Part shown: in pieces, positions 36,110-50,514 of the stretch
How the letters are laid out: every line of letters starts with the position of its first letter
Position numbering within the stretch: the stretch's first letter is position 1
Assembly (NCBI GenBank): GCA_019115825.1
Contig: DXCV01000033.1
Span: 1 to 64,000, forward strand
Direction of reading: 5' to 3'
Source of the DNA: Candidatus Bacteroides pullicola
GTDB lineage: Bacteria; Bacteroidota; Bacteroidia; Bacteroidales; Bacteroidaceae
DNA: 64,000 nt
Notes under the pieces: generated by a model
Told to the model about the DNA's origin: nothing
Database searches by the model: none
Seen by the model: only the letters and a program-made list of their open reading frames with translations
Made by a program: the position numbers and the translations under genes

Positions 36110-36113
36110 CACT

Positions 36114-36920
36114 ATGCTACCCTTTCTCTCTATTCTCGCGCTTTCGGCCGTCCTGTCCGCGGCTTCCCCGGCGGACACCGTGCAGGCGGACGACGCCCGT
36201 CCCATCGAGCGTGCCACGATGTACGGCCTCGGCTGGGCCAACGAGTATGACACCTACCTTTCGCCCCAGGAATACCGCGGCATCGAGTTCCGCCTCTCGC
36301 GCGAGAGCCTGCGCCGCACCCGTTGGGCGGACGGACGCCTGGTGCGCCAATCCTTCTTCCAAGGTTACGCCAACTACACGCACAACCACGTGGACAACAA
36401 CAACGCCCTGGGCGCCCTCGTCAACTGGAACTGGGGATTGCACTACGACTTCCCCGTGGCCGACGGCCTGCACCTCTTCGCCGGCGGCTTGGCCGACCTC
36501 TCCGGCGGCTTCCTCTGGAACTTCCGCAACGGCAACAATCCCGCCAACGCCCGCGCTGCTGTGGCCGTGGATGCTTCCGTGGGAGGCGCGTGGGACTTCC
36601 GCCTGCGTCGCGTGCCCTTCCGCCTGCGCTACCAGTTGGATGTACCTCTTGTCGGCGCGATGTTCTCTCCCCACTACGGGCAGTCCTATTATGAAATCTT
36701 TTCCCAAGGCAATGCCGGCGGGGTAGTGCGCTTCACGTCGTTGCACAACCGCCCGTCGTGGCGCCACCGCCTGTCGCTGGATTTCCCCGTGGGGCGCGCC
36801 CGGATGCGCTTCACCTACCTGTGGGACGCCCAGCAGTCCGAAGTCAACCATATCCGCACCCATGCCTACGGACATATCTTCATGGTGGGATTTGTCAAAC
36901 GGTTCAACCTGATAAAATAG
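36114..36920 (+). CDS. DUF3316-type outer membrane-like protein
   Basis: Signal peptide; ATMYGLGWANEYDTYLSPQEYRGIEFRLSRES; beta-rich; immediately follows parC. Confidence 0.75.
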   Translation: MLPFLSILALSAVLSAASPADTVQADDARPIERATMYGLGWANEYDTYLSPQEYRGIEFRLSRESLRRTRWADGRLVRQSFFQGYANYTHNHVDNNNALGALVNWNWGLHYDFPVADGLHLFAGGLADLSGGFLWNFRNGNNPANARAAVAVDASVGGAWDFRLRRVPFRLRYQLDVPLVGAMFSPHYGQSYYEIFSQGNAGGVVRFTSLHNRPSWRHRLSLDFPVGRARMRFTYLWDAQQSEVNHIRTHAYGHIFMVGFVKRFNLIK

Positions 36921-36927
36921 CCTGACA

Positions 36928-37926
36928 ATGAAACAGCTTTCTCTCCTCCTGTCCCTCCTTCTGCTCTTTGCCTCGTGCATCCGCGAGGAGGAATACGACA
37001 ACAGCGCCGTCGGCAACTTCGAAGCGCTGTGGACGCTCATCGACGAACACTACTGCTACCTGGACTACAAGCAGATAGACTGGGATGCCATCCACGAGCA
37101 ATACCGCCGGCAGATAACGGACGATATGGGCAGTGACGCCCTCTTCGAGGTGCTGGGCAATATGCTGGCCGAGTTGCGCGACGGCCACGTCAACCTCTAC
37201 TCCGCCTGGAACACCGCCCGCTACTGGGACTGGTACCTGGACTATCCGCGCAACTTCAGCGAGGCGTTGATTGAAGATTACCTCGGACGCGACTACCGCA
37301 TCGGCGGCGGTGCCAGGTACACCATCCTCAAGGACAACATCGGCTACGTCTACTACCCCGACTTCTCCGCCGGCATCGGCGATGGCAACCTGGACGAGAT
37401 GCTGCTCTACCTCGGCGTATGCAACGGCCTTATCATCGACGTGCGCGGCAACGGCGGCGGCAACCTGACCACCTCGTCCAAGCTCGCCGCCCGCTTCACC
37501 AACGAGCGCGTCCATGTGGGATACCTGCAGCACAAGACCGGTCCCGGCCACAGCGATTTCTCCGACCCCGAGCCAATCTACATCGACCCGTCCGATGGCG
37601 TGCGCTGGCAGAAGCCTGTCGTCGTGCTGACCAACCGCCACAGCTACAGCGCGACCAACGACTTTGTCAACTCCATGCGCTGCTTCCCCCAAGTCACCCT
37701 CGTGGGCGACCGCACAGGCGGCGGGGGAGGTATGCCCTTCTCTTCCGAGCTGCCCAACGGCTGGGGCGTCCGCTTCTCCGCCAGTCCCACGCTGGATGCC
37801 GACGGCCAGCACATCGAGGACGGCATTGACCCCGACATCCATGTGGATATGACCGAGGAGGACGAGGCGCGGGGAGTGGATACCATTATCGAAACGGCGA
37901 GGAAAGCATTGAAAAACCGCACCTGA
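36928..37926 (+). CDS. S41 family peptidase (tail-specific protease-like lipoprotein)
   Basis: Lipobox LLFASCIREEE; LIIDVRGNGGGNL, VVVLTNRHSYSATNDFVNSMRCFPQVTLVGDRTGGGGGMPF. Confidence 0.93.
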   Translation: MKQLSLLLSLLLLFASCIREEEYDNSAVGNFEALWTLIDEHYCYLDYKQIDWDAIHEQYRRQITDDMGSDALFEVLGNMLAELRDGHVNLYSAWNTARYWDWYLDYPRNFSEALIEDYLGRDYRIGGGARYTILKDNIGYVYYPDFSAGIGDGNLDEMLLYLGVCNGLIIDVRGNGGGNLTTSSKLAARFTNERVHVGYLQHKTGPGHSDFSDPEPIYIDPSDGVRWQKPVVVLTNRHSYSATNDFVNSMRCFPQVTLVGDRTGGGGGMPFSSELPNGWGVRFSASPTLDADGQHIEDGIDPDIHVDMTEEDEARGVDTIIETARKALKNRT

Positions 37927-37973
37927 TTCGTCAACTTCCTCGCCGAAACTTTGCCGGAAACGAAAAATCTCCG

Positions 37974-37981
37974 TATCTTTG
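37974..37981 (+). promoter_or_regulatory. -7 promoter element TATCTTTG of tRNA-Leu
   Basis: TAnnTTTG 24 bp upstream of the tRNA 5' end. Confidence 0.65.
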
Positions 37982-38004
37982 CGCCCGTTCACACTAAACT
38001 TGTT

Positions 38005-38086
38005 GCGGGTGTGGCGTAATTGGCAGCCGCGCCAGACTTAGGATCTGGTGCCGAAAGGCGTGCAGGTTCGAGTCCTGTCACCCGCA
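38005..38086 (+). tRNA. tRNA-Leu (anticodon TAG)
   Basis: GCGGGTG...CACCCGC acceptor stem; AGACTTAGGATCT anticodon arm; variable arm; GGTTCGAGTCC T-loop. Confidence 0.95.
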
Positions 38087-38123
38087 CAAAGATACGGAGT
38101 AAAAACGCTTGCGTCGTCCTTCT

Positions 38124-38546
38124 TCACTTCACCCTAATCCACATCATCTCCCCCTCCGGCCTCTCCGCCAGACGCTTCATCAGTCGTTGCAGCCACTGGC
38201 GCGAATCGAACAACCGTCCGGGATAATGCTTCAAGGTATGGCCCACCAGGATGCACCCCTCGGTGTCCTCCGCTGTGTTGCCTGCATGGATGCGTATGCC
38301 CTCGAAACCGCGCACATGGAGCAGCAGCGGCAGCCACTTCCCGCCGAACTTCGGCGAGCGGGTGATGAACAGCGGATAATACCCTTCGGGAATGGCCGTC
38401 CGGCCGGGTATCTTGATCTCTTTTCCGCGCGGAGGTATGTCGCGCCACGTCGGTTCAAGCGTGTTGCAGAAGGGTTTCCCCTCTATCGAGAGGATACCCA
38501 AGGTGTAGTACTTTCGCTTCTTAGTTCGCTTTAAGGTCAATTCCAT
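38124..38546 (-). CDS. DUF5675 family protein
   Basis: MELTLKRTKKRKYYTLGILSIEGKPFCNTLEPTWRDI..IRIHAGNTAEDTEGCILVGHT. Confidence 0.88.
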   Translation of the reverse strand: MELTLKRTKKRKYYTLGILSIEGKPFCNTLEPTWRDIPPRGKEIKIPGRTAIPEGYYPLFITRSPKFGGKWLPLLLHVRGFEGIRIHAGNTAEDTEGCILVGHTLKHYPGRLFDSRQWLQRLMKRLAERPEGEMMWIRVK

Positions 38547-40953
38547 TGCTGCGGTATTTTAGTTTTTGATAACTGTGATCTGTGATAATTGTGATGTATC
38601 CTCTGAGTTTCCACTGGCTCAGCATGTGCGAAGTGCCTTTTGCATCCATCCCTTGCATCAGCCGAAGTCGTTCGGCATCGGCTGTGGTGAACTCATCGGG
38701 TAACAGTTCCAACAAGTTGCGTGGGCCGGTATGTATTTTCCTTCCGCACATCGCTTCTTGGTTGGCCGCCTCGATGGCCTCACCGAAAAACTCCATCTTG
38801 CACCACATATCATATTGCAACGACCAGCGCACAAAGTCCTCCAACGTCTTGTCCCACGTGCAGCCCTGCGCCACATACAGTACACACGCCTTCAGGTAGG
38901 CTATCACATTGGCGCGGAAGCTCAGATTTTCGTACACCCGGCTTTGCGAGAGGCGGGCAAACTCGGCATTCTCCTCGCACAATTTTTTCGCCAACTTGTA
39001 TGCTTCGGGGCAATCTACCAATCCCGTGGCACGCACCAAGTTTTCGATATATGGACGCAATTCCTCGTCAAATGCGGCGTCATACGTGCCATAGACCGGC
39101 ATATCCGCACCGATTTCGCGCTCGGGGATGGTGCAGAAGTTGATGCGCGAGATGGGACCGTCCGTCAAGACCTTGGAGAAATAGCGCTTGCCTTTCTGGA
39201 TAGTTGTCGCGGCATTCCAGTTGAAGCGGATGGTAACTTTTTCTGTCACGCTCTGCGAACCTACGCGCGTCTGTCCGTAGCGGTTGCCGGGGTCGAACGC
39301 CAGACACATAATCTGGAATTGCTGTCCGCCCTTTCCGCTTCCCCGCAAGGCGTCGAATTGGTCTATCTCATTCAATTTTGTGTACAGGAAGTGTCCGTCC
39401 GCCTCTGCCGTGCGCATGACGAATGCCGGGTTGGTCATATCCGCATCAATCTCCTGAATGATAAGGCCTTCCGGGCGTTGCCGTTTGTCCTTGTTTGCGC
39501 CCTTCGAGTTGACTTCCTGCTTCCATTGCCGCTCACGTTCGAGGTTGCGTGCGTCGCGCTCGCGGATGTCCGCCATGATGCGGTTGATGGGTTCGCTGAT
39601 GCAATCCTTGCCCGCTCCGGTGCCTGCCATAAGGACGTTCATCAGCGTGGCCTCGTGCTCCACATTGTCAATGTATTTGAAGCGGACGCGGTGCAGGTGT
39701 GCGGCCAGCGAAGGGAAGACGGCGTGCGCCACGGCAGGTTTGTAGAGGTCCGGCGTGCGGCTGACCAGCAGCTTGATGAGCGGCGGTAATTTTTTCGGCA
39801 TGGGAGGGGCCCCCTCAACTCCCCCCGAGGGGGAGCTTATGGATACCCCCGCCGTATCGGGCTTCCCCCCGTATGGGGGGATTGAGGGGGGCTGTTGGAT
39901 TGAGGGGGGCTGTGGGTTGCAGCGTTCCACCGCTTCCTGCATCATCTTCGGCATTCCGCACCATTGCGCCGTGCAGGCAGAGTGTATTAGGCTTTTCATT
40001 TCCTCTTCACCCAATCCATAGCGCGGCATGATTTTCAACAAAAGCTCCTCATTATTGTCCGTGATGTGGCGCAAATGATACGCTAATCTGTGCAGCTTCG
40101 TGTTGCGCTCACCCTCCGCAGGTTCGCCACCGGCGAGGATGAACCATTGTTTGATAATTTCTGAATACGGGATGCCTTTGAAGGTATCCAAATTCCCCTC
40201 CTCCGGGGAGGAGGGGTGGCCAACGGCCGGGGTGGTAGCGGCAGCAACCAACGCAATATTCCCCGCGAGCGACTTCGCTACCACCTCCCCCTTCGGGTAC
40301 TTACCCCCTCCTTGCTCCCCCGTTTCCCGGGGGAGGGCAACCTCCTCGGAGGAGGAGAATTGAGTTACCTCGTTGCGTGCGGCAACCTCCGCGGAAAACA
40401 ACCGTTCCTCGTCAATATACAGGATATACTCCTCCGGCACCGCGAACGATGACCGTGCCAAGTCCTTGACGCTCTGGTCATAATTCGGGTCGTTCAACTG
40501 CTGCGACATCCAGCGTTGCGCCCCTGCCAAGTCCATGCCCGGCGGGATGACAAACACCAGGCGCAGCCCCTCGCGCGAGGGCGTGATGTGCGCCAGGACG
40601 ATGCCCAACTCCTCCCTGCGCTCCTCGACGACGTGCTCATAATACTCCCACGGTGCTTCCAGGTGGTCGATGTCATACATGGAGAGGCCGGTGGGCACGG
40701 CGTCCGCATTCAGCCTCCGTCCGCCGGGGAAAGTGGCGTGGAATGTAAATATCGGCAACCGCTTCTTCTCACGGTTTTTCAATTCCTCAAACTCTTCTTT
40801 TGCCAGTTCTCCCCGCTTCCATTGTTCCCAGGCGTCGGCGATGCCTGCACAGACCGTGGCCACGTAGTCCGAGCGCACGGCTTTCCAAAACAGTTCCGGG
40901 GTGCAGGTGCGCACCTCGCGACTTCTAACGTTGTTTGATATTCCGAATGACAT
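38521..40953 (-). CDS. BT4734/BF3469-like protein: VirE N-terminal / primase-like domain plus DUF3987
   Basis: N-terminal KRLPIFTFHATFPGGRRLNADAVPTGLSMYDIDHL..GIVLAHITPSREGLRLVF; C-terminal DUF3987 ATPase-like region; contains palindromic repeat insertions. Confidence 0.88.
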   Translation of the reverse strand: MSFGISNNVRSREVRTCTPELFWKAVRSDYVATVCAGIADAWEQWKRGELAKEEFEELKNREKKRLPIFTFHATFPGGRRLNADAVPTGLSMYDIDHLEAPWEYYEHVVEERREELGIVLAHITPSREGLRLVFVIPPGMDLAGAQRWMSQQLNDPNYDQSVKDLARSSFAVPEEYILYIDEERLFSAEVAARNEVTQFSSSEEVALPRETGEQGGGKYPKGEVVAKSLAGNIALVAAATTPAVGHPSSPEEGNLDTFKGIPYSEIIKQWFILAGGEPAEGERNTKLHRLAYHLRHITDNNEELLLKIMPRYGLGEEEMKSLIHSACTAQWCGMPKMMQEAVERCNPQPPSIQQPPSIPPYGGKPDTAGVSISSPSGGVEGAPPMPKKLPPLIKLLVSRTPDLYKPAVAHAVFPSLAAHLHRVRFKYIDNVEHEATLMNVLMAGTGAGKDCISEPINRIMADIRERDARNLERERQWKQEVNSKGANKDKRQRPEGLIIQEIDADMTNPAFVMRTAEADGHFLYTKLNEIDQFDALRGSGKGGQQFQIMCLAFDPGNRYGQTRVGSQSVTEKVTIRFNWNAATTIQKGKRYFSKVLTDGPISRINFCTIPEREIGADMPVYGTYDAAFDEELRPYIENLVRATGLVDCPEAYKLAKKLCEENAEFARLSQSRVYENLSFRANVIAYLKACVLYVAQGCTWDKTLEDFVRWSLQYDMWCKMEFFGEAIEAANQEAMCGRKIHTGPRNLLELLPDEFTTADAERLRLMQGMDAKGTSHMLSQWKLRGYITIITDHSYQKLKYRSNGIDLKAN
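39795..39916. repeat. GC-rich palindromic/tandem element within the VirE/DUF3987 CDS
   Basis: gaggggccccctcaactccccccgagggggag...ccccccgtatggggggattgaggggggctgttggattgaggggggctgtgg; encodes PQPPSIQQPPSIPPYGGKPDTAGVSISSPSGGVEGAP. Confidence 0.75.
40191..40361. repeat. 171-bp palindromic element in frame within the VirE/DUF3987 CDS
   Basis: AATTCcCCTCCTCCGgGGAGG ... CCTCCTCGGAGGAGGaGAATT inverted ends; length is a multiple of 3. Confidence 0.78.
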
Positions 40954-40962
40954 GATGATTAG

Positions 40963-41098
40963 GAGCCCCTCCCTACCTCCCCCGATGGGGAGGAGTTCAG
41001 AGCATTTTTTTGATTTATTAATCAGTTATTATTATACATAATTCTCTCAGATGGTTGTAACGGGTCCCCTCCCCTTCGGGGGGAGGAGGGAGGGGGCT
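40963..41098. repeat. Intergenic GC-rich inverted repeat
   Basis: AGCCCCTCCCTACCTCC inverted as GGAGGAGGGAGGGGGCT around an AT-rich centre. Confidence 0.7.
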
Positions 41099-41411
41099 AT
41101 TCCCACGCTCCTCCGAACACATTATCCACGAAATCCGAGGCCTGCCGGCTCTCCTCCTCGATGGCCTGTGCGGGCAGGATGTCCGCCTCGTCAAGGTTCA
41201 CTACGAGAGAGAGGCGCACGTTTTTCTTGCTCACGCTGGCCCGTCCGTGGGGCAACTTCATATAGAGGCTTCCCGGCTGGGAACAGGATTTGTTGTGTTC
41301 GTTGAAGTTGCCTTCCGTGGGACTGGTCAGTCCGATGGTGCCTTGGATGCGGCTTCCGCCCGAGATAAGACGCTTGTAGGCAGCGTCGCTAAGTTGTAAA
41401 GTAATATTCAT
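41097..41411 (-). CDS. Hypothetical protein (104 aa), upstream of VirE gene
   Basis: Intact ORF with host-like codon pattern, same strand and spacing as VirE operon. Confidence 0.65.
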   Translation of the reverse strand: MNITLQLSDAAYKRLISGGSRIQGTIGLTSPTEGNFNEHNKSCSQPGSLYMKLPHGRASVSKKNVRLSLVVNLDEADILPAQAIEEESRQASDFVDNVFGGAWE

Positions 41412-41432
41412 AATGGTTAATGGATAATGGTT

Positions 41433-41714
41433 TCACGCCAGGCGTGCGATGTAGATTTGGTTCTCGTAGCGCGTCGCCCCGTTCTTGTCCTGGTAGGCGC
41501 GTTGGCGGATGGTGGCCTGCACCGTGTGCAGCATGGCGGGGTCCAGCTCGGGGCAGCTGAGGGCGGCGTCGCCCGTCATTTCGGCATAGAACTCGTCGAT
41601 GCCGTCCGTCAGCAGGAAGCCGCGGCTGTGGAAGGTGCGTTGCGTGCCGTCCTGCGCGGTGTAGGTGCGGGAGGCGAGGGGGTGTTGCTTGATGATGCGT
41701 ACAAGTTTTTCCAT
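41433..41714 (-). CDS. Hypothetical protein (93 aa)
   Basis: MEKLVRIIKQHPLASRTYTAQDGTQRTFHSRGFLLTDGIDEFYAEMTGDAA...; same apparent operon as 41097-41411. Confidence 0.65.
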   Translation of the reverse strand: MEKLVRIIKQHPLASRTYTAQDGTQRTFHSRGFLLTDGIDEFYAEMTGDAALSCPELDPAMLHTVQATIRQRAYQDKNGATRYENQIYIARLA

Positions 41715-41898
41715 ACGAATTTAAAGTTTGATGGGTTGTCCGTAGCACTATTGCCACGGCTTCTGAATGCGAAATTACGCAAGGGGCTTCATGGATTGAT
41801 TTTCCGGCGGCAAGATATTTTCCTCTTGTCCAACAAGTCCAACCGTTTGGCCGTGTCTTGTCCGGCGAGTCCAAGCCATTGTCCAACTACCAACAAAA

Positions 41899-41953
41899 AA
41901 ATCCCATTACCTTCAGAGTTGAGGAGGCCTCTTCAGGGTAATGGGAATCTTTT
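41899..41953. terminator. Bidirectional terminator hairpin separating the VirE operon and HerA operon
   Basis: aaaaaaATCCCATTACC...GGGTAATGGGAatctttttt. Confidence 0.8.
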
Positions 41954-41972
41954 TTGCAGGAGGTGACCCGGC

Positions 41973-43010
41973 CTATTGCTGGCTCTTCTCCTTGTCCATC
42001 CTTTGTTTCAGATCCACGAGCTTTTTGTACAGTCCTGTGTAGGCTATGGAATATATACGCTCCATTTTAGCTTGTTCCATTTGCAGGTATTTGCGTTTGG
42101 CCCACATGTCTTGGAGAGTTATTATCGTTTTGGCTTTTCCGTATCTCCATAGTCTTTTTTCTTCGGAGATTGACTTGGCAAGATGTCGTTTGTATTTGTT
42201 CCACTCATCGGAGCTGGCTATTGAAAAGACGGTGGGATACCAATCCAACATTTGGTCTATGAAGGAGGTGACGGCAAAGTTGTTTTTTCCTACGCGGGCT
42301 TCTTCAATGGCCTTCACGATGTAATACCATTCCCCCTGCACGCCGGGATTGATTCGCATCTCTTGCGGTGTCCCATATATTATGGAAGCGTCTCCTGTAT
42401 CAATGGCAGCGGCAATGGTTGAACGTAGTGCGATTAACTTCCTGTTTGTGTCAAACAAGCGTTCATTGAATATCAGATTTTTCAGCAGGTCTTCTTCTTC
42501 TCCTTCTTCATGGTCTTCTTCGGCAGAGGCAGGCGTGCCGAAGTGGATGTCCCCATTGATGTTGAAAAAAAATTTCGTTGTATGGCCAGGGGCATTTTTC
42601 TTCTCATGTATTATTTTCGTCAGCAAATCATCTATTGTCTTTGTCAAACAATACCAGGAAAAGAATCCGTCAAGTTCTTCTTGATTGATATGTCCATCGC
42701 ACAGGAAATTCCATTTGTATATGAATTTGATGCAATCGAAGTCGCCCTTGTCCAAGTCGAAACAGCTTTTCCAGATGAGATAAAATTCCCTGCTTTCGCA
42801 ATCTTTGGCAATGCTTGCGCGTTTGTCACGAAGCACCCGTGTGAGTTCCTCTACATCATTGGGGGAAACCCGCATCTTCAGTTCGCGCCAGAATGCTGTA
42901 AGCACTTTTTTCCAGGATTCTGAGGCCACATAGGTCAATTTGTATCTTTGGAAAAAACCTTCGTAATCATGGTTTTGCAATGCCGGATATTTATCTTTCC
43001 GCTCATCCAT
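41973..43010 (-). CDS. Hypothetical protein, last gene of HerA/NurA/HSP90/radical-SAM operon
   Basis: MDERKDKYPALQNHDYEGFFQRYKLTYVASESWKKVLTAFW...; ORF overlaps the 3' end of the radical-SAM gene (ORF maximum start 43040). Confidence 0.8.
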   Translation of the reverse strand: MDERKDKYPALQNHDYEGFFQRYKLTYVASESWKKVLTAFWRELKMRVSPNDVEELTRVLRDKRASIAKDCESREFYLIWKSCFDLDKGDFDCIKFIYKWNFLCDGHINQEELDGFFSWYCLTKTIDDLLTKIIHEKKNAPGHTTKFFFNINGDIHFGTPASAEEDHEEGEEEDLLKNLIFNERLFDTNRKLIALRSTIAAAIDTGDASIIYGTPQEMRINPGVQGEWYYIVKAIEEARVGKNNFAVTSFIDQMLDWYPTVFSIASSDEWNKYKRHLAKSISEEKRLWRYGKAKTIITLQDMWAKRKYLQMEQAKMERIYSIAYTGLYKKLVDLKQRMDKEKSQQ

Positions 43011-44934
43011 TATTCTCAACTGACTGTCTTGACGCATCAAATTCTTTCTTTAATTGATATAATTTAGACTTATGGTTTGCAATCTCGCTCCGATAGTTTT
43101 TGTAGAAGGTCAGAATTTCCCTGAACTTCTTGTTGTCGGTCAACTCTTCTATGTGGTTGAAGTCATTGTCATAAATAAGGGGCAGAAGTTCTTCTCTTTC
43201 TTTGTCAGACAATGCTTCCATGGACTCGCGCCATTTTTGTGTATATCCCAAGTGTTCAAAGAAGTAGCGGAACAACAGGAACGTTTCGGGCATGGTCAAT
43301 AGTTCCATGAATTCGTTTTCGTCCTTGCCAAAGGCTTTTTCAAAGAAAGATTTTCCTTTCCCTATTTTCCCTTTGGTAGCGTTCAGGATGACTTGCACGG
43401 CCCGGATATATTTTTTGTTCCAATGGATGCCTATGAAGTCCCGGTCGTGGCTATGTTCCCCGTTTATCGGATGGTACTTCATGGGAAAAGAATAGATGTT
43501 CACCTTCATCTTCTCGCACAAGTCTACGTTGATGCGCATCCTGTGATACAGGTCTGTAGGTTTGTCCTGGTAGTTGTAGAGCAAATAGTTCGAAAAATTC
43601 TTTATGCCCCGATCCCGGCTCATTGTCAATGCCCGCACGTAGGATTGCTCCGTCTTGACGTCGTCAAAGGCTATCCGGAGTGGACGTATGGGGATTTGGG
43701 CCAATAATCCGACCCTTTCCTCGTTGAACAAACGAGCATCTACGCCTTGGTTGAAATCCACATAGCGCAATCTGCCCTTGCTTTTGCCAGGCGCATACTT
43801 CTTGTCAAAATACGGTGCGAAGTTCTTGTAAGTCGCTATCAAGGCTTCGCGCGAGCAAGTCTCCAAGTGGAGCAGTCCGTTTTGTTCCCGCAGTTTGTAG
43901 ATGTTCATCCGTTCGTCTTCGTCCAGCAGTTTGCATTCGTTGATGGCCTGCAGCAGTTTGAAGGTCTTTTTGGTATAGGCCCGGTCGTTCAGCCTCAGGC
44001 GCAGGTTGCGTATGGCAATGTCATATTGGTTCGGCTCCACGAATTTGGATCCCGGCGTGAAACCGCATTTCTTTATGTCATCTATGATTGCAGGCAGTTG
44101 TTTGGAAGCCAATACATTGTTATCCATCAGCAATAAGTTCTGCTGCTCTCCGTACAAGCGACGCGTGCGCTCGATGCGTTCGACAAGAGGTATGTATTCC
44201 TGATACTGGGGTTCCAACGTCCATACAGCACAAAACGGGCATCGGCGGATGCAACCGCGCGTGGCATAGCCATAGTATGCGTCGCTATCGGGATATACAT
44301 AGTCTATTTCGTCCAGGATGGAATAATCCAAAGGCAGTTCGTCTATGACATACGGGTTGTCGGCATCTATGTCCTGGTAGGGCGTATGAAGCGTCCCGCG
44401 ATGAGGCTTGATGCCTGTTGCCGCTTCTATCTCTTCGGGTTGAATGGTAGCCAGCACCCCGCCTACCATCAGGTTGGCAGGATCTTTCACCATGGTTTTG
44501 GCAAATTCGATGGTTTCTATCGTGATGTCCCAGTAGAATGTGAACAACGTGGTGACACCTACCCAATCCCAACGGGGATGCATTTTGTACTCGCCGCTGT
44601 GATAAAACTTCTTGTAATGTTCCAGCCAAGGGTAGATGAAGATGGACATCCTTGAATCATCTACTTTGATTTTTTCCAGATCTTCCTTTTTCCTGTATCT
44701 GATATAGGTTCCTATCTGGGAGAGGCGGCGTTTCCAGTCTATCGCATCATCTACCTTGCTCAGTTGCGTCACACATTCTTCCGCTATCTGATTTACGATA
44801 AATGCGTTCAAATCTCCCTTGTAGAATACCACGTCATCACCACGCAGGCGGAAATAAGTGGCCAGCTTCATCAAGCCGATGGGTGGGAATTTGTTCTTGT
44901 AATTGGGCTCTAATAATAATACTCTGCGGTTCAT
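43003..44934 (-). CDS. Radical SAM protein with N-terminal B12-binding-like domain
   Basis: RVLLLEPNYKNKFPPIGLMKLATYFRLRGDDVVF; YATRGCIRRCPFCAVWTLEP (CxxxCxxC); NLLLMDNNVLASKQL; RYVDFNQGVDARLF. Confidence 0.88.
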   Translation of the reverse strand: MNRRVLLLEPNYKNKFPPIGLMKLATYFRLRGDDVVFYKGDLNAFIVNQIAEECVTQLSKVDDAIDWKRRLSQIGTYIRYRKKEDLEKIKVDDSRMSIFIYPWLEHYKKFYHSGEYKMHPRWDWVGVTTLFTFYWDITIETIEFAKTMVKDPANLMVGGVLATIQPEEIEAATGIKPHRGTLHTPYQDIDADNPYVIDELPLDYSILDEIDYVYPDSDAYYGYATRGCIRRCPFCAVWTLEPQYQEYIPLVERIERTRRLYGEQQNLLLMDNNVLASKQLPAIIDDIKKCGFTPGSKFVEPNQYDIAIRNLRLRLNDRAYTKKTFKLLQAINECKLLDEDERMNIYKLREQNGLLHLETCSREALIATYKNFAPYFDKKYAPGKSKGRLRYVDFNQGVDARLFNEERVGLLAQIPIRPLRIAFDDVKTEQSYVRALTMSRDRGIKNFSNYLLYNYQDKPTDLYHRMRINVDLCEKMKVNIYSFPMKYHPINGEHSHDRDFIGIHWNKKYIRAVQVILNATKGKIGKGKSFFEKAFGKDENEFMELLTMPETFLLFRYFFEHLGYTQKWRESMEALSDKEREELLPLIYDNDFNHIEELTDNKKFREILTFYKNYRSEIANHKSKLYQLKKEFDASRQSVENNG

Positions 44935-46559
44935 TCCTTCATCAACTCTTTTTCTATCTTCAAAATCAGGCTATCGCGCATGTTCTCGTCCGCAATGGCA
45001 TTGTAAATGGCGGCGTAGACTACATTGATTATGTTTTTTTCTTTCTCGTCGAATTTTCGATAGGATTCCCTGTCGGTTCGCAGCAAGCAGCGAGGAACCT
45101 CACTGGATGATGCGGGGAAAGTCTCTTTGTCGGCCGTGTGGGCATACGGGTGTTCCTGTTGCTTATATGCGGTCGACTCTTGGGGTGTAGCAGCCGGAAC
45201 AGTCTTGGGGAGGATGGAATCTGCATTGCTGTAAATAAGGCGGAGCGGTGAATTCTTTTCTTCCATCTTACGCTGTAGTTTCTCTATCTTTTGCTCAGCC
45301 GCTTCCTTGTTCTTCTTGAACTGTTCAAAGTCTTTTTCATCCTTCTCCCGCTCTGCTGGTGCAATGTAACCGGTTACTTTCTTCTTCTCCAGCTTTTCTT
45401 GCTTTTCAAGGGCTTTGTCATAGTCATCCCGTGCGCTTCTCATTTTTGACGCATCATTGCAAAGTTCCTTGAGCACCTTGAAATCTTCTCTTACCCAGTT
45501 CTCGAAGTCGGGACGGTAATCGCTTTCACGGATGTAGTCACGGCGTGCGTCGGGCACCAATTCCGGAGCCTCCACATGCAATTCGCCATAAAAATATTGG
45601 GAAAAACGCTTGTCGCCTTCCGCCGCGAAGAAATTGCGGCAAGTGCGTTCGTCCCCCACTTGGATATTCTTGCACCTCAAGCGCATTCCGTATGCCAGGT
45701 TTTCGGAAGGTATTTGCCCACGCAACTCCGAGATAGAATACCATCCCCAATAAACCATATTGTCGTCTTGGTTTTTCTTGCTGAAAAATTGAATGTCCTT
45801 GACATCATAATCACCATTGCGTTTGTCTCTTATACTTGTGGTATAGGCTTTGTAAATCTGCTCTTCGGCCTGCTCGTCCCCCACATAGATGTTGTAGACA
45901 TCGAGGGACAGGCCGTTGCTGCGGACAAAGTCCTTGATCTTGGCAGCAAATCTGGTGAACGAGGTGGGGTAGTCTACCGGCGATACAAGGGACAAATAGT
46001 CACGAATGTTTCCCACGTCGAGCAGGCGGTCGTCTTTGACGTTCTCCAGAATGACCTTGAAGTAGTGTTTCGCATTCTCTTCGGGTTGCTCTTCAAACGA
46101 GGTGCAATCGTCTATCACGTCTCCGGCTTCGCTTTCGTCCATGTCGTCGTCGAGGATGCGGCTCATCTTATCGGCATCCCAGCGCATGATGGTCTTTACC
46201 TCTTCACCCTTAGCCGAAGTCTCGAAGACCAGCATCGAACAATATCCCAATCCGCCCAGGCGGCCTATCCCGCGGAAGCCTTTCTGCTCTCCACGTTTCT
46301 TTCTCGAAGCGGCCACGTCAAGGAGTTGGCTTCTGTCTTCATGCCTCACCCCTGTGGCCGTGTCTTCTATCTCTATTCTGCGCCGGTCGCGGAAAATCCG
46401 CACATGGATGCTATAATAGTCGTCCTCCTCAAGGTGTTGTTCGCGTGCCAAGTCTATTTGGTCTGCTGCGTTTTGGATATATTCACGATAGATGCACCTA
46501 CTGTCTTCGTACATGCTCCGGGTGAGCGATTCTATGACGTTTTTGCCGATTTTTGCCAT
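44931..46559 (-). CDS. HSP90-like / GHKL ATPase protein
   Basis: YREYIQNAADQI (ExxxN), IEDTATGV (DxxxG), KGFRGIGRLGGL (GxxGxG). Confidence 0.87.
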   Translation of the reverse strand: MAKIGKNVIESLTRSMYEDSRCIYREYIQNAADQIDLAREQHLEEDDYYSIHVRIFRDRRRIEIEDTATGVRHEDRSQLLDVAASRKKRGEQKGFRGIGRLGGLGYCSMLVFETSAKGEEVKTIMRWDADKMSRILDDDMDESEAGDVIDDCTSFEEQPEENAKHYFKVILENVKDDRLLDVGNIRDYLSLVSPVDYPTSFTRFAAKIKDFVRSNGLSLDVYNIYVGDEQAEEQIYKAYTTSIRDKRNGDYDVKDIQFFSKKNQDDNMVYWGWYSISELRGQIPSENLAYGMRLRCKNIQVGDERTCRNFFAAEGDKRFSQYFYGELHVEAPELVPDARRDYIRESDYRPDFENWVREDFKVLKELCNDASKMRSARDDYDKALEKQEKLEKKKVTGYIAPAEREKDEKDFEQFKKNKEAAEQKIEKLQRKMEEKNSPLRLIYSNADSILPKTVPAATPQESTAYKQQEHPYAHTADKETFPASSSEVPRCLLRTDRESYRKFDEKEKNIINVVYAAIYNAIADENMRDSLILKIEKELMKE

Positions 46560-46561
46560 GG

Positions 46562-48241
46562 TTATTCGTAATACTTGTAAATGGGTAATGGGAAATTGAT
46601 GTGCAGCATGGAGCGGAACACCGGGTTCTGGATGATGTATTCTCCCTGCTTCATGCGGGTGAGCATAGTCTTGTAGACGCTGGGGACGAAGCGGAAATCC
46701 TCGCGGGAGATTTCAATGGCATTCGTCCTGCCGAAGGCTTGTGTGGCACAATTGCCCTTGACCCGGCGATGTATGTCGCTTACGAACTGCTCTGCTCCGA
46801 AAAGCACGATGCCCAACGAGCGTCCGCGCTCTGTGATGTCCAGCAGTTGGTGGAGGATGGGGGATGATTTGGGTATGTCCACGGAGGCATATTTGTTTAG
46901 CTCGTCAATGAAGATGATGATTCGTCCGGGTATTTCCTCATCGGGCCGGAGTGACGTGCCGAGTTTCAGGTTATATACGGCACGCATCACGTCGCCGAAG
47001 ACGAAGCCTTGGGATTCTTCATCCAACTTGGCCACGTCTATCACCATTACGTCATTTTTCTTGATTTGGGCTATCTTGTCCCGCAGGCGGACACCTGTAC
47101 CCAACTGGTTGGTGAACATTTGCTGGCATTTCTGATAGCTCTTGTTGAAAAGCCGGTAGAATTTCCGCCAGCTCATCACGGAAATCTCCTTGCCGGCATT
47201 CCGGCTCTTGTCTGTTTGGGTCTGCTTGTAAAGGGCGTTCTTGAAATCCTCCCACGATTCAATCCCCTTGAAGTCGCCACTATTGGATATGATGTAGTTC
47301 AGGATGCTTTCCACCGTCTCATTGGGGTCATCCACATTGGCAAAAAGCAAGTCCAGGCACTCTTTGTCTTCGTCCGTTTCAAAAAGATATTTGTATTGAA
47401 AGGCTTTCTTGTCCCGCATGCGTTCTTCTATAACCTCCTTTTTCTCATAGGTGTACGAGGTATGGTCCTTGGAAAACGGATAGAAATATTTCACTTGCTT
47501 GAAGGGGAACATCTCCATCCCCAGCAGGTCGTAGACTGGCCTTATCTGTTCCAATTCATTCTTGCGTCCGTTGGGTTGGTCTACTTTCAGCAGGTCGGTG
47601 CCCTTTACGTTTATCATAATGAAAGCCACGGATTCCGTTTCGTCCTTCATCGCATAGTCCTGAATGGCTTTCATCAGGAACATGGCATATGATGTCTTGG
47701 AAGCCAGGCCGGAAATGCCGGAAATGTTCAGATGGGCTCCTTCGGGCCCGATCAGGAAATGGGAGTTGAAGAACACGGGTAACATCTTGCGGTTCTCCCC
47801 ATCATACATCTTTATGTAGCCGGCTGGCATGGGGTTCTTCACGTCTTTCAGCCCCAAGGCTTCCATAATCTCTTCTTCATCGGCCAAGGACACCTTCCGC
47901 CCTTCTTGGACGGGGATGTAAATACCCCGACTGTTTCCCACCACTTTGCATTTCACATAATTCATTCCTATGCGTTCGGTATATGAATGGGCGTTCACGT
48001 CTCCGAAATCGCTGGAAATGAATCCGGCCAACGCACTGGGAGAATCCGTCATGTGGGAAATTTCTTCCACCACTCCGAATGTCTTAGATTCATTGCCTTC
48101 AGAATCTTGCACGTGCTCGACGACAACGACGTCGAACGGATTCAACTTTAAATCCTGTTTCGTCCAAAACGTGAATTCTTCGATGGTAGAAGGTTGTTTC
48201 TCGGTCGCTATGACTCTTCCAATGATTTCCATAATGATCAA
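46562..48241 (-). CDS. HerA-like ATP-binding protein (HAS-barrel plus DUF87-type ATPase)
   Basis: IGRVIATEKQPSTIEEFTFWTKQDLKLNPFDVVVVEH, LNISGISGLASKTSYAMFLMKAI, RIIIFIDELNKYAS (Walker B), VKGNCATQAFGRTNAIEIS. Confidence 0.87.
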   Translation of the reverse strand: MIIMEIIGRVIATEKQPSTIEEFTFWTKQDLKLNPFDVVVVEHVQDSEGNESKTFGVVEEISHMTDSPSALAGFISSDFGDVNAHSYTERIGMNYVKCKVVGNSRGIYIPVQEGRKVSLADEEEIMEALGLKDVKNPMPAGYIKMYDGENRKMLPVFFNSHFLIGPEGAHLNISGISGLASKTSYAMFLMKAIQDYAMKDETESVAFIMINVKGTDLLKVDQPNGRKNELEQIRPVYDLLGMEMFPFKQVKYFYPFSKDHTSYTYEKKEVIEERMRDKKAFQYKYLFETDEDKECLDLLFANVDDPNETVESILNYIISNSGDFKGIESWEDFKNALYKQTQTDKSRNAGKEISVMSWRKFYRLFNKSYQKCQQMFTNQLGTGVRLRDKIAQIKKNDVMVIDVAKLDEESQGFVFGDVMRAVYNLKLGTSLRPDEEIPGRIIIFIDELNKYASVDIPKSSPILHQLLDITERGRSLGIVLFGAEQFVSDIHRRVKGNCATQAFGRTNAIEISREDFRFVPSVYKTMLTRMKQGEYIIQNPVFRSMLHINFPLPIYKYYE

Positions 48242-49464
48242 AATAAATTAATGAATTGGATATCGCTTTTGAAACGGCTTTTGCAATAACTTTCAGTCAT
48301 GTAAACTGGGTACAGATGATTGGCCCAGCGGGCATCGCTGCCGTAGCACACGGGATTGCGCTCATTGATGATGTTGGCGGTGATTGCATCGACTTCATCC
48401 GTCAGCAGGCCATGGTCATTTTCATGCCCGGTCATCAGCATCTTTTCTATTTTCAAGATGCCGGAATAAGGGGTCACAGTATGCCTGGCATCGCGGATCC
48501 GTACATACCAGATGGCAAAATTCACCCCGCCCCATTCAGGTCCCGGACTCCAGAGAATGGCAGGCGTGCGGTGATATAGGGGCAATTTGGCTATTCGTCC
48601 CGCGCAACTCTGTCCGCGATTGTCCTTCATCAGATTGGGATTAAATTTTTTCGATACTCCTACCACGTGTCGGTAATTGTTGCGGATTCGATTCAATTCC
48701 TTGTAGTCTCCGGTCTTCATGGGCTTATACTGGATGGAGCCGTCTTTTATCAAATAGCTTTCGTGGGTCAGCAGATGCTTATTCATCAGGCGTGCCACGA
48801 TACGTTTCTCGCAGTCTGTCATCTCGTCTTGTATGCGGGCCACTCCTTTGTTCTCCAATGTCTCTTTCCCCTCACACTTGGTCAAGTAGTAGAGGACTCT
48901 GCCTATTTGTATTCCTGAACTACGCAATAAAGCCAATTCATTCAACTTGTTTTTCAGGTTTCCGAAAAACGAAGCATTATCTCCGCCGTCACCATTGGCT
49001 ATGATGGGCAAGCATACAACGGAATAACACTCTTCGTCAATATGACTGAAAGAATGGAAGGTAAAATCCTCATTCATTTCCCGGGCACAACAAGCCACGG
49101 CGATTTGCCCGCTAACTATGGGATAGACCTTCTTGTCATATTGCACATCATCCACCTTGTAAACACGGCGCGAGCCATCCAAAAAATATTTGAATAGCGC
49201 CGGGCCTTGGTTGCAATCTTTGGCTAGTGCCCTCATATCTCGGTCATGGGCATCATGGTTGTTTTCCGCGAACTCCTTCAAATTGACATATTTGTCTTCA
49301 TCCGATTCATACTCAACATTGGGATTTGACGAATCGTCGTAGCAATACTTGAAAGAAGCAAAGCATTCTCCATTGGTTTCTCGCGCTATGTAGTTTAGAA
49401 TCTTCTCCATCTGTCTATCTGGCTCATTTTTTGCGACCTTTATGATAAATCTCAATGATAACAA
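48238..49464 (-). CDS. NurA-like nuclease (probable ATG start 49410; TTG at 49464)
   Basis: YFLDGSRRVYKV...YPIVSGQIAVACCARE (DGS motif), ESYLIKDGSIQYKP, C-terminal DARWANHLYPVYMTE; translationally coupled to HerA. Confidence 0.68.
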   Translation of the reverse strand: MLSLRFIIKVAKNEPDRQMEKILNYIARETNGECFASFKYCYDDSSNPNVEYESDEDKYVNLKEFAENNHDAHDRDMRALAKDCNQGPALFKYFLDGSRRVYKVDDVQYDKKVYPIVSGQIAVACCAREMNEDFTFHSFSHIDEECYSVVCLPIIANGDGGDNASFFGNLKNKLNELALLRSSGIQIGRVLYYLTKCEGKETLENKGVARIQDEMTDCEKRIVARLMNKHLLTHESYLIKDGSIQYKPMKTGDYKELNRIRNNYRHVVGVSKKFNPNLMKDNRGQSCAGRIAKLPLYHRTPAILWSPGPEWGGVNFAIWYVRIRDARHTVTPYSGILKIEKMLMTGHENDHGLLTDEVDAITANIINERNPVCYGSDARWANHLYPVYMTESYCKSRFKSDIQFINLF

Positions 49465-49480
49465 CTAAGTAAATGATTTG

Positions 49481-49488
49481 CAAAAATA
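49481..49488 (-). promoter_or_regulatory. -7 promoter element TATTTTTG of the HerA/NurA operon
   Basis: CAAAAATA on + strand = TATTTTTG on - strand, upstream of the first gene. Confidence 0.5.
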
Positions 49489-49626
49489 GTTCTTTGCTTT
49501 TTATTTGCAAAATAGAATAATCACTTTCTGACATCCAAGGTTTCAACTATATGACTTCAACATGTGGTTGCCAATATAGTGTACTTCCCGAAAGCGTCTC
49601 AGTGCTTCCGGTGTCTCAATCATCAC

Positions 49627-49806
49627 AATCACAGTTATCACAGTTCACAGTTAGCAAAAACGGATTATTTGTAAAGATAGAGGGTAAAATATAGTTTAAT
49701 ATATATATAATATATATTATATATATATTAAGTATTATATAGAGATATTTTCTCTACTTTCGGGCGGAACTCTTTTCGGTAACTGTGAACTGTGATAACT
49801 GTGATT
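49627..49806. repeat. Perfect 27-bp inverted repeat flanking an AT-rich palindromic core
   Basis: AATCACAGTTATCACAGTTCACAGTTA (49627-49653) / TAACTGTGAACTGTGATAACTGTGATT (49780-49806); core TTTAATATATATATAATATATATTATATATATATTAA. Confidence 0.93.
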
Positions 49807-50034: not shown

Positions 50035-50514
50035 ATGAGTTTCTACAAAAAGATTTTCAATGAAAAATTCGGCGTCTACTATCCCAGCGCCGTGACTGTG
50101 GGCCAGCCCGTCCCCGTGAAGAAGGTGGCCAAGCGATTGAGCCAAATGTGTACCGTGACGTATGCCGACGTGATGGCTGTCTTGGGCGAACTGCCGGGCG
50201 TGATGGCCGACTATATGGGCCAGGGCAAGAGCGTCCGCCTCGACGGACTGGGCACCTTCCGCTACACGCTGAAGACCAAGGGCGTCGCCGACGAAGCCGA
50301 CTTCGACTTCCAGAAGCAGGTGAAAGCCATCCGCGTCCAGTTCGTCCCCGCACGCGAGGGAGCGCAGACCAAAGGCTCCGTAGCCACCCGCGGCCTGGTG
50401 CCTACCGGCATTGAGTGGCTGCCCTACGATGCCATCGCGACCGAAGAAGGCGGCAGCGTGACCCCGGGCGAACCGATCGAGCCGGGCAGCGGCGACGAGG
50501 ACTCCTTCGGCTGA
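50035..50514 (+). CDS. HU family (HU-like) DNA-binding protein
   Basis: VKKVAKRLSQMCTVTYADVMAVLGELPGVMADYMGQGKSVRLDGLGTFRYTLKTKG. Confidence 0.92.
   Translation: MSFYKKIFNEKFGVYYPSAVTVGQPVPVKKVAKRLSQMCTVTYADVMAVLGELPGVMADYMGQGKSVRLDGLGTFRYTLKTKGVADEADFDFQKQVKAIRVQFVPAREGAQTKGSVATRGLVPTGIEWLPYDAIATEEGGSVTPGEPIEPGSGDEDSFG

What the first reader, a model, noticed from the sequence alone, without database searches (positions are those of the whole stretch)
41973..49488. Candidate undescribed system: NurA-like nuclease + HerA ATPase + HSP90-like ATPase + radical SAM + orphan protein in one operon
Seen: five minus-strand genes with 4-nt or similarly short overlaps or gaps (48238/48241, 46562/46559, 44934/44931, 43003/43010), one TATTTTTG promoter-like box upstream (49481-49488) and a hairpin terminator at the end (41899-41953). 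The block is visibly more AT-rich than its flanks. Established: HerA-NurA is a nuclease/translocase pair for DNA end processing, HerA-like ATPases recur in anti-phage systems (SIR2-HerA, DUF4297-HerA), and GHKL/HSP90-like ATPases occur in several immune operons. Inference: coupling these to a cobalamin-type radical SAM enzyme and an orphan protein matches no named defence system I can recall. A DNA/RNA-modification or modified-nucleic-acid-sensing defence module is plausible.
Basis: partly seen in the sequence, partly recalled or inferred. Interest (0 to 1): 0.9.

Follow-up and report, generated by a model that had tools for sequence, protein, structure and literature searches.

The report
Mobile NurA-HerA-GHKL-radical SAM defence operon
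A bacterial gut genome carries a foreign-looking set of genes for a DNA-pumping motor, a DNA-cutting enzyme, an HSP90-like switch and a vitamin-B12-type radical enzyme that travel together through many bacteria and phages, most likely an undescribed anti-virus system that adds an unusual chemical step to a known DNA-shredding machine.

Summary
The five-gene operon is real, with minor corrections to the starts of genes 1 and 2. It is not chance adjacency. NurA-like nuclease, Deinococcus-type HerA, HSP90-like GHKL ATPase and B12-type radical SAM occur in that order in dozens of loci, with 4-nt overlaps and co-evolving sequences. In 395 Bacteroidia genomes the GHKL and radical SAM profiles hit exactly the same five genomes; HerA hits those five plus one divergent locus. 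Gene 5 is not core: it is one of several exchangeable genes in its slot (AbiP2 reverse transcriptase, Schlafen-AlbA ATPase, MazG, a second GHKL pair). Some loci insert Menshen-like NsnB-NsnC. The operon is rare (about 1-2% of genomes, 1 of 160 in its genus), low-GC and in an accessory segment between tRNA-Leu and glyS. GHKL plus radical SAM also pair without NurA-HerA, behind a DndB/DpdB-like protein on alphaproteobacterial plasmids. Genes 1, 4 and 5 have no PADLOC hit; no paper found describes the set. Best reading: an undescribed anti-invader system in which GHKL gates a NurA-HerA DNA shredder and radical SAM modifies nucleic acid or protein. Defence role and radical SAM chemistry are inferred, not shown.

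The parts
   Evidence: No Pfam hit alone. Family profile's only PDB match is D. radiodurans NurA 7f6d_H, E=0.11, 0.0015 with the extended profile. Invariant D96 (FLDGSR), E219, D241, K272, R379, H383, P0001 numbering. Homologous to the annotated NurA-like UF08_56 of Marinitoga camini virus 1, 6.6e-29.
   Evidence: phmmer to DrHerA 7f6d_B 1.9e-39, family profile 1.4e-51. Walker A GISGLASKTS (K182/T183) and Walker B D446/E447 align with DrHerA K175/T176 and D487/E488.
44931..46559 (-). g3: GHKL (HSP90-like) ATPase, 542 aa
   Evidence: HATPase_c_3 1.3e-6; profile to HtpG 2ior 4.3e-11. N-box E26/N30/D33, D66, G70, G94/G97/G99 invariant.
43003..44934 (-). g4: radical SAM enzyme with N-terminal B12-binding-like domain, 643 aa
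   Evidence: C228-x3-C232-x2-C235 invariant; phrog_9298 'radical SAM domain protein' 7.8e-33. AlphaFold pLDDT 88.8, pTM 0.83; best PDB folds TsrM 6.5e-7, MgmA 1.5e-6, AprD4 5.3e-4.
41973..43010 (-). g5: orphan, mostly helical accessory protein (345 aa) in the variable fifth slot
   Evidence: No Pfam, PADLOC, NCBIfam or PHROGs hit. Homologues found only behind g4, in 12 loci counting the window; none on plasmids or phages. AlphaFold pLDDT 81, pTM 0.52, no PDB or viral fold match.
49481..49511 (-). Promoter-like TTTG-N19-TATTTTTG (Bacteroidetes -33/-7 type)
   Evidence: Pattern search, 3 in window vs 0.27 expected.
41890..41960 (-). Intrinsic terminator hairpin with T-run closing the operon
   Evidence: Fold -28.2 kcal/mol, z -4.56.
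38005..38087 (+). tRNA-Leu at the boundary of the accessory segment 38.09-50.8 kb that holds the operon
   Evidence: ARAGORN; synteny with same-genus relatives.

Best explanation
A horizontally mobile, undescribed anti-invader (most likely anti-phage) system. Core: a HerA hexamer that pumps dsDNA into a NurA nuclease (known biochemistry of the closest homologue), controlled by a GHKL ATPase that occupies the place SbcCD/Rad50 holds in other NurA-HerA operons and probably acts as an ATP-driven clamp or switch that loads or licenses the shredder on invader DNA. A B12-type radical SAM enzyme, tied to the GHKL protein more tightly than to NurA-HerA, performs a radical modification, most plausibly of nucleic acid (a self/non-self mark or a signal), less plausibly of a partner protein. 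A swappable fifth gene adds back-up or effector function. Shown here: homologies, conserved active-site residues, co-occurrence, co-evolution, mobility, variable slot. Inferred: complex formation, DNA degradation, GHKL gating, radical SAM substrate, defence phenotype.
For: Recurrent unit: g4 in 38 loci, order g1-g2-g3-g4, g3/g4 overlap exactly 4 nt in 28 of 36. Three separate profile searches of 395 Bacteroidia genomes: g3 and g4 in the same 5 genomes, HerA in those 5 plus one divergent locus, physically together. Distance-matrix correlation r = 0.89-0.98 in 29 loci, 0 of 999 permutations. NurA/HerA catalytic residues that are essential in D. radiodurans (D53, K201, R309; Walker motifs; PMC9960219) are conserved here. 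Sporadic and mobile: 5 of 297 phylum genomes, 1 of 160 in the genus with a full-length copy, low GC3, accessory segment absent from relatives, plasmid, phage and viral-contig relatives. Defence company in the fifth slot or inserted: AbiP2 3e-182, Schlafen AlbA_2 in 3 loci, second GHKL pairs, MazG, NsnB 1.4e-63 with NsnC 4e-9. Divergent NurA-HerA pairs follow Type IIG restriction-modification genes. GHKL paraMORC ATPases are argued in the literature to act like SbcC/Rad50 (PMC3710099), and NurA-HerA sits with SbcC-SbcD on other plasmids.
Against: No phage assay or expression data. NurA-HerA is a bona fide repair/end-resection complex in archaea and Deinococcus, so the core could serve repair or recombination. 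The neighbour survey was not scored against a random-gene background. The Marinitoga virus carries NurA-HerA plus a short radical SAM gene and no GHKL gene, which fits a viral DNA-metabolism use. The radical SAM substrate is unknown and cobalamin binding was not tested.
Confidence: 0.62

Rival explanations
1. A mobile-element-borne DNA repair or recombination module: NurA-HerA resects ends during element replication or integration, and GHKL and radical SAM assist (for example base-repair chemistry), without immunity.
For: NurA-HerA is a resection complex in D. radiodurans and archaea (PMC9960219). A temperate virus, Marinitoga camini virus 1, encodes NurA, HerA and a phrog_9298 radical SAM gene. 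Plasmid NurA-HerA-SbcD-SbcC operons look like repair sets.
Against: Low, patchy occurrence; exchange of known defence genes in the fifth slot and inserted Menshen-like genes; the GHKL-radical SAM pair also sits with a DndB/DpdB-like protein instead of NurA-HerA.
Confidence: 0.2
2. A modification-based self/non-self system: radical SAM plus GHKL write a mark in host DNA or RNA, and NurA-HerA (or the DndB/PIN partners on plasmids) destroy unmarked DNA.
For: The alternative partner of GHKL-radical SAM belongs to the DndB/DpdB family of DNA-modification proteins (PF14072 2.6e-5; DpdB 2.1e-7). The radical SAM fold is of the B12 methyltransferase type, TsrM and MgmA. Divergent NurA-HerA pairs adjoin Type IIG modification-restriction enzymes.
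Against: No DNA-binding or specificity domain was recognised in g3-g5. TsrM modifies tryptophan and MgmA a protein glutamine, so the fold does not imply nucleic acid. Radical marking of a whole genome has no example known to me.
Confidence: 0.13
3. Chance adjacency of unrelated genes.
For: None beyond the rarity of the set.
Against: Recurrence, translational coupling, co-evolution and exact genome co-occurrence.
Confidence: 0.01

Closest known systems
Deinococcus / archaeal NurA-HerA end-resection complex
   Same: Same two enzymes, adjacent; the unusual Walker A (GISGxAxKTSYA) is shared with DrHerA; NurA catalytic residues conserved.
   Different: There a general repair complex; here rare, mobile and coupled to GHKL and radical SAM.
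HerA-nuclease/NADase defence pairs (HerA-DUF4297, SIR2-HerA)
   Same: HerA ATPase paired with an effector enzyme (PMC11291478, PMC12198126).
   Different: The effector is a NurA-like nuclease, not DUF4297 or SIR2 (no such hit), plus two components those systems lack.
MADS (methylation-associated defence system)
   Same: P0002 matches PADLOC mad8 at 1.1e-9.
   Different: No match of g1, g3, g4 or g5 to any other mad model.
Menshen (NsnABC)
   Same: NsnB-like (1.4e-63) and NsnC-like (4e-9) proteins (scanned in L072) are inserted in the expanded variants L071, L072 and L119.
   Different: Absent from the window's operon; the variants carry NurA-HerA-GHKL-radical SAM around them.
Plasmid NurA-HerA-SbcD-SbcC operons
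   Same: HerA, with a NurA-sized gene before it in two of three cases, heads an operon on mobile DNA, next to Wadjet-like genes in one case.
   Different: SbcCD stands where GHKL-radical SAM stands here.
Dnd/Dpd DNA-modification systems
   Same: DndB/DpdB-like protein is the alternative partner of the GHKL-radical SAM pair on alphaproteobacterial plasmids.
   Different: In the plasmid stretches read no other Dnd/Dpd gene is named beyond a second DGQHR protein in two; no DndB in the window operon.

Membership tests
NurA nuclease family | RNase H-like nuclease with DGS Asp, second acidic residues and catalytic Lys/Arg | tested here: met
   D96, E219, D241, K272 and R379 invariant in 23 homologues; only PDB match is DrNurA, E 0.0015 with extended profile. 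The fold itself was not modelled.
HerA translocase family | HAS barrel plus RecA-like core with Walker A/B | tested here: met
   DrHerA 1.4e-51 over both parts; Walker residues align; weak HAS-barrel hit, E 0.079.
GHKL ATPase superfamily (HSP90-like) | N-box ExxxNxxD, G1 DxxxG and G2 glycine motifs | tested here: met
   Invariant E26, N30, D33, D66, G70, G94/G97/G99; HtpG 4.3e-11.
Cobalamin-type (class B) radical SAM | CxxxCxxC cluster motif and N-terminal B12-binding-like domain | tested here: met
   Motif invariant; model matches TsrM, MgmA and AprD4. By my own knowledge AprD4 has the domain but needs no cobalamin.
Cobalamin-type (class B) radical SAM | Actual cobalamin binding | not testable with these tools
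   Needs purified protein; no DxHxxG motif seen in P0004, which class B enzymes often lack (own knowledge).
MADS | Further Mad proteins beside a mad8-like ATPase | tested here: not met
   Only mad8 similarity of g2.
HerA-DUF4297 / SIR2-HerA | DUF4297 or SIR2 effector next to HerA | tested here: not met
   No such domain in any of the five proteins.
Mza (MzaABCDE) | MzaB-like GHKL plus the other Mza proteins | tested here: not met
   Only weak MzaB similarity of g3, 1.3e-3.
Menshen | NsnA, NsnB and NsnC together | tested here: not met
   None in the window; NsnB/NsnC-like only in expanded relatives.
Anti-phage defence system (functional class) | Protects cells from phage | not testable with these tools
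   Genomic association only; no assay.

The most novel reading that the evidence does not exclude
GHKL and B12-type radical SAM form a portable two-protein licensing module of a new class of prokaryotic immunity: it plugs into different DNA-handling effectors (NurA-HerA in Bacteroidota, DndB/DpdB-like and PIN partners on alphaproteobacterial plasmids) and uses radical chemistry, on nucleic acid or on the effector, to decide when invader DNA is destroyed. I know of no defence system that uses a B12-type radical SAM enzyme in this way.
Probability: 0.35. Interest if true: 0.88.

Novelty: new variant of a known kind. Interest (0 to 1): 0.74.

Why it matters
If it defends, it would add radical chemistry of the B12 type to HerA-nuclease immunity and show a GHKL-radical SAM pair that moves between different DNA-destroying effectors. 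It makes a direct question testable: what does this radical SAM enzyme modify, and does that mark, signal or switch decide when NurA-HerA attacks DNA? It also gives a concrete set of loci, cultured hosts included (Parabacteroides, Prevotella ruminicola KHT3), for experiments.

Tried and rejected
Chance adjacency: rejected. Five-gene core: rejected, gene 5 is missing or replaced in most loci. Membership in MADS, Mza, Menshen, HerA-DUF4297, SIR2-HerA: not met. A PDB relative of g4 by sequence alone: none; it needed a model. A fold for g5: none in PDB or the viral library. Near-identical DNA on plasmids: none. A paper describing the set: none found with eight queries; bioRxiv and most subscription papers are not held. 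A query for Menshen papers returned only unrelated ones. Neighbour PADLOC/Pfam survey: suggestive (RhuM, YhcG, Fic, HipA, integrase) but not compared with a background, so not used as main evidence.

Full report
Observation. The five minus-strand ORFs, their tight junctions, the promoter-like box and the terminator are present as described. Comparison with homologues moves the starts of g1 to ATG 49410 and g2 to ATG 48232, so the g1/g2 junction is a 5-nt gap; g2/g3 is a 2-nt gap, g3/g4 a 4-nt overlap, g4/g5 an 8-nt overlap. The operon is poorer in GC (0.435-0.492; GC3 0.51-0.66) than flanking native genes (GC3 0.82-0.86).

Identities. g1 is a NurA-family nuclease: no Pfam match alone, but its family profile finds only D. 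radiodurans NurA in the whole PDB (E 0.11; 0.0015 after adding divergent relatives), and D96, E219, D241, K272, R379 and H383 (P0001 numbering) are invariant. By my reading of the profile alignments K272 and R379 fall on DrNurA K201 and R309, whose mutation abolishes nuclease activity, as does D53A (PMC9960219); the mapping assumes a 20-residue offset between the PDB chain and the published numbers, which fits both residues. g2 is HerA of the Deinococcus type (1.4e-51), with the same odd Walker A (residues in PMC9960219). g3 is a GHKL ATPase nearest HSP90/HtpG with all ATP-site motifs invariant. g4 is a radical SAM enzyme (invariant CxxxCxxC; phrog_9298 7.8e-33) whose confident model (pLDDT 88.8, pTM 0.83) matches TsrM, MgmA and AprD4, i.e. 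the class with a B12-binding-like N-terminal domain. g5 is an orphan, mostly helical, without a significant sequence or fold match.

It is a unit. A scan with g4 gave 39 loci, nearly all Bacteroidales; L041 is cut by the contig end inside g4, and L037 (Izimaplasma) has radical SAM and a divergent GHKL without NurA-HerA. Where contigs allow, the order is g1-g2-g3-g4, and g3/g4 overlap by exactly 4 nt in 28 of 36. Across 29 complete loci pairwise distances of the four proteins correlate at r = 0.89-0.98, 0 of 999 permutations. To avoid finding only what the g4 query selects, I searched the same 395 Bacteroidia genomes with three profiles: g4 hit 5, g3 hit the same 5, HerA hit those 5 plus one divergent locus. 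The own locus and the four other shared loci carry the full set, two of them with insertions (L119, L121).

The fifth slot varies. g5 homologues follow g4 in 12 loci including the window; elsewhere the slot holds an AbiP2 reverse transcriptase overlapping g4 by 4 nt (L010), Schlafen AlbA_2-HATPase proteins (L028, L030, L062), MazG (L023), orphan proteins, or a second GHKL with a 330-aa partner (L018, and before g4 in L121). L071, L072 and L119 insert an NsnB-like AAA ATPase, an NsnC-like protein and a second GHKL between g3 and g4 (NsnB/NsnC scores are for L072).

Mobility and distribution. g4 occurs in 5 of 297 genomes of the phylum and, full-length, in 1 of 160 same-genus genomes. In five of eight same-genus relatives the gene at window 33431-36109 lies within about 1 kb of glyS (in L110 about 10.7 kb away; in L107 and L111 not within the 16 kb read). 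In the window that segment, with tRNA-Leu, is inverted, and 38.09-50.8 kb (DUF3987/HU cluster plus operon) lies between tRNA-Leu and glyS and has no counterpart in any of the eight 16-kb stretches. All four genes occur in viral contigs L054 and L055 and in a human-gut 'Bacteriophage sp.' scaffold, L062. Marinitoga camini virus 1 carries NurA, HerA and a short radical SAM gene on the other strand.

A second context. tblastn with g3 and with g4 hits the same 12 of 72,556 plasmid records (some are duplicates of one plasmid), all alphaproteobacterial, none with this HerA. In the four read, the order is DndB/DpdB-like protein, radical SAM, GHKL; in three of them a PIN_8-type protein with a second g3-family GHKL lies nearby. 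So GHKL and radical SAM are partners independent of NurA-HerA. Conversely HerA relatives sit with SbcD-SbcC on other plasmids, and divergent NurA-HerA pairs sit behind Type IIG restriction-modification genes in L056 and L122.

Mechanism. HerA pumps and NurA cuts dsDNA by homology to a characterised complex; GHKL stands where SbcCD stands in other NurA-HerA operons, and GHKL paraMORCs have been argued to act like SbcC/Rad50 (PMC3710099), so I propose a GHKL clamp or switch that loads or licenses NurA-HerA. HerA/FtsK capture by defence systems is a described theme (PMC10853773). The radical SAM step is the open part: the DndB/DpdB link favours nucleic acid, while the fold neighbours (tryptophan, protein glutamine and aminoglycoside substrates, own knowledge) do not decide. 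I put defence at about 0.7 and the specific scheme lower; overall 0.62.

Comparison. PADLOC 2023 gives only mad8 for g2 and a weak MzaB for g3; the other defining parts of those systems are absent. Full-text searches found no paper with this combination, but preprints and many journals are not held, so a recent name cannot be excluded. As a HerA-nuclease system it is a new variant of a known kind; the portable GHKL-radical SAM pair is the part without precedent that I know of.

Noticed in passing
49627-49806: 34-nt inverted repeat (94% complementary) around an AT-rich stretch with a perfect 18+18 palindrome (49696-49731), just upstream of the operon; in the own genome it matches only itself.
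   Followed up: partly
38124-41714 and 50035-50514: DUF3987/VirE-like, DUF5675 and HU-like genes around the operon; a DUF3987 relative lies in the fetched flanks of the operon in 7 other loci (L004, L006, L013, L016, L029, L034, L040), and the HU region has several diverged copies in the own genome: possible insertion hot spot.
   Followed up: partly
33431-38090: Segment with tRNA-Leu is inverted relative to same-genus relatives, where gene 33431-36109 usually lies near glyS.
   Followed up: yes
L071, L072, L119 (between g3 and g4): Menshen-like NsnB and NsnC genes plus a second GHKL inserted inside the operon.
   Followed up: yes
L057:1659-12047 and L058, L059, L060: Alphaproteobacterial plasmid operons DndB/DpdB-like, radical SAM, GHKL, with a PIN_8-GHKL pair in three of the four: a probable sister system.
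   Followed up: partly
L056:3361-9755 and L122:1998-8007: Type IIG restriction-modification gene directly upstream of a divergent NurA-HerA pair: another likely defence module.
   Followed up: partly
L014:8415-10004 / L118:10544-12133: g3 is split by a stop in Parabacteroides chinchillae while its neighbours are intact: decay or sequencing error.
   Followed up: no
L061:7927-11753 (Marinitoga camini virus 1): A temperate virus carries NurA, HerA and a phrog_9298 radical SAM gene without GHKL.
   Followed up: partly
L077:165-12050 (Streptomyces plasmid): HerA-SbcD-SbcC beside TIGR02680/TIGR02678/DUF2397 genes, which I recall as Wadjet-type.
   Followed up: no
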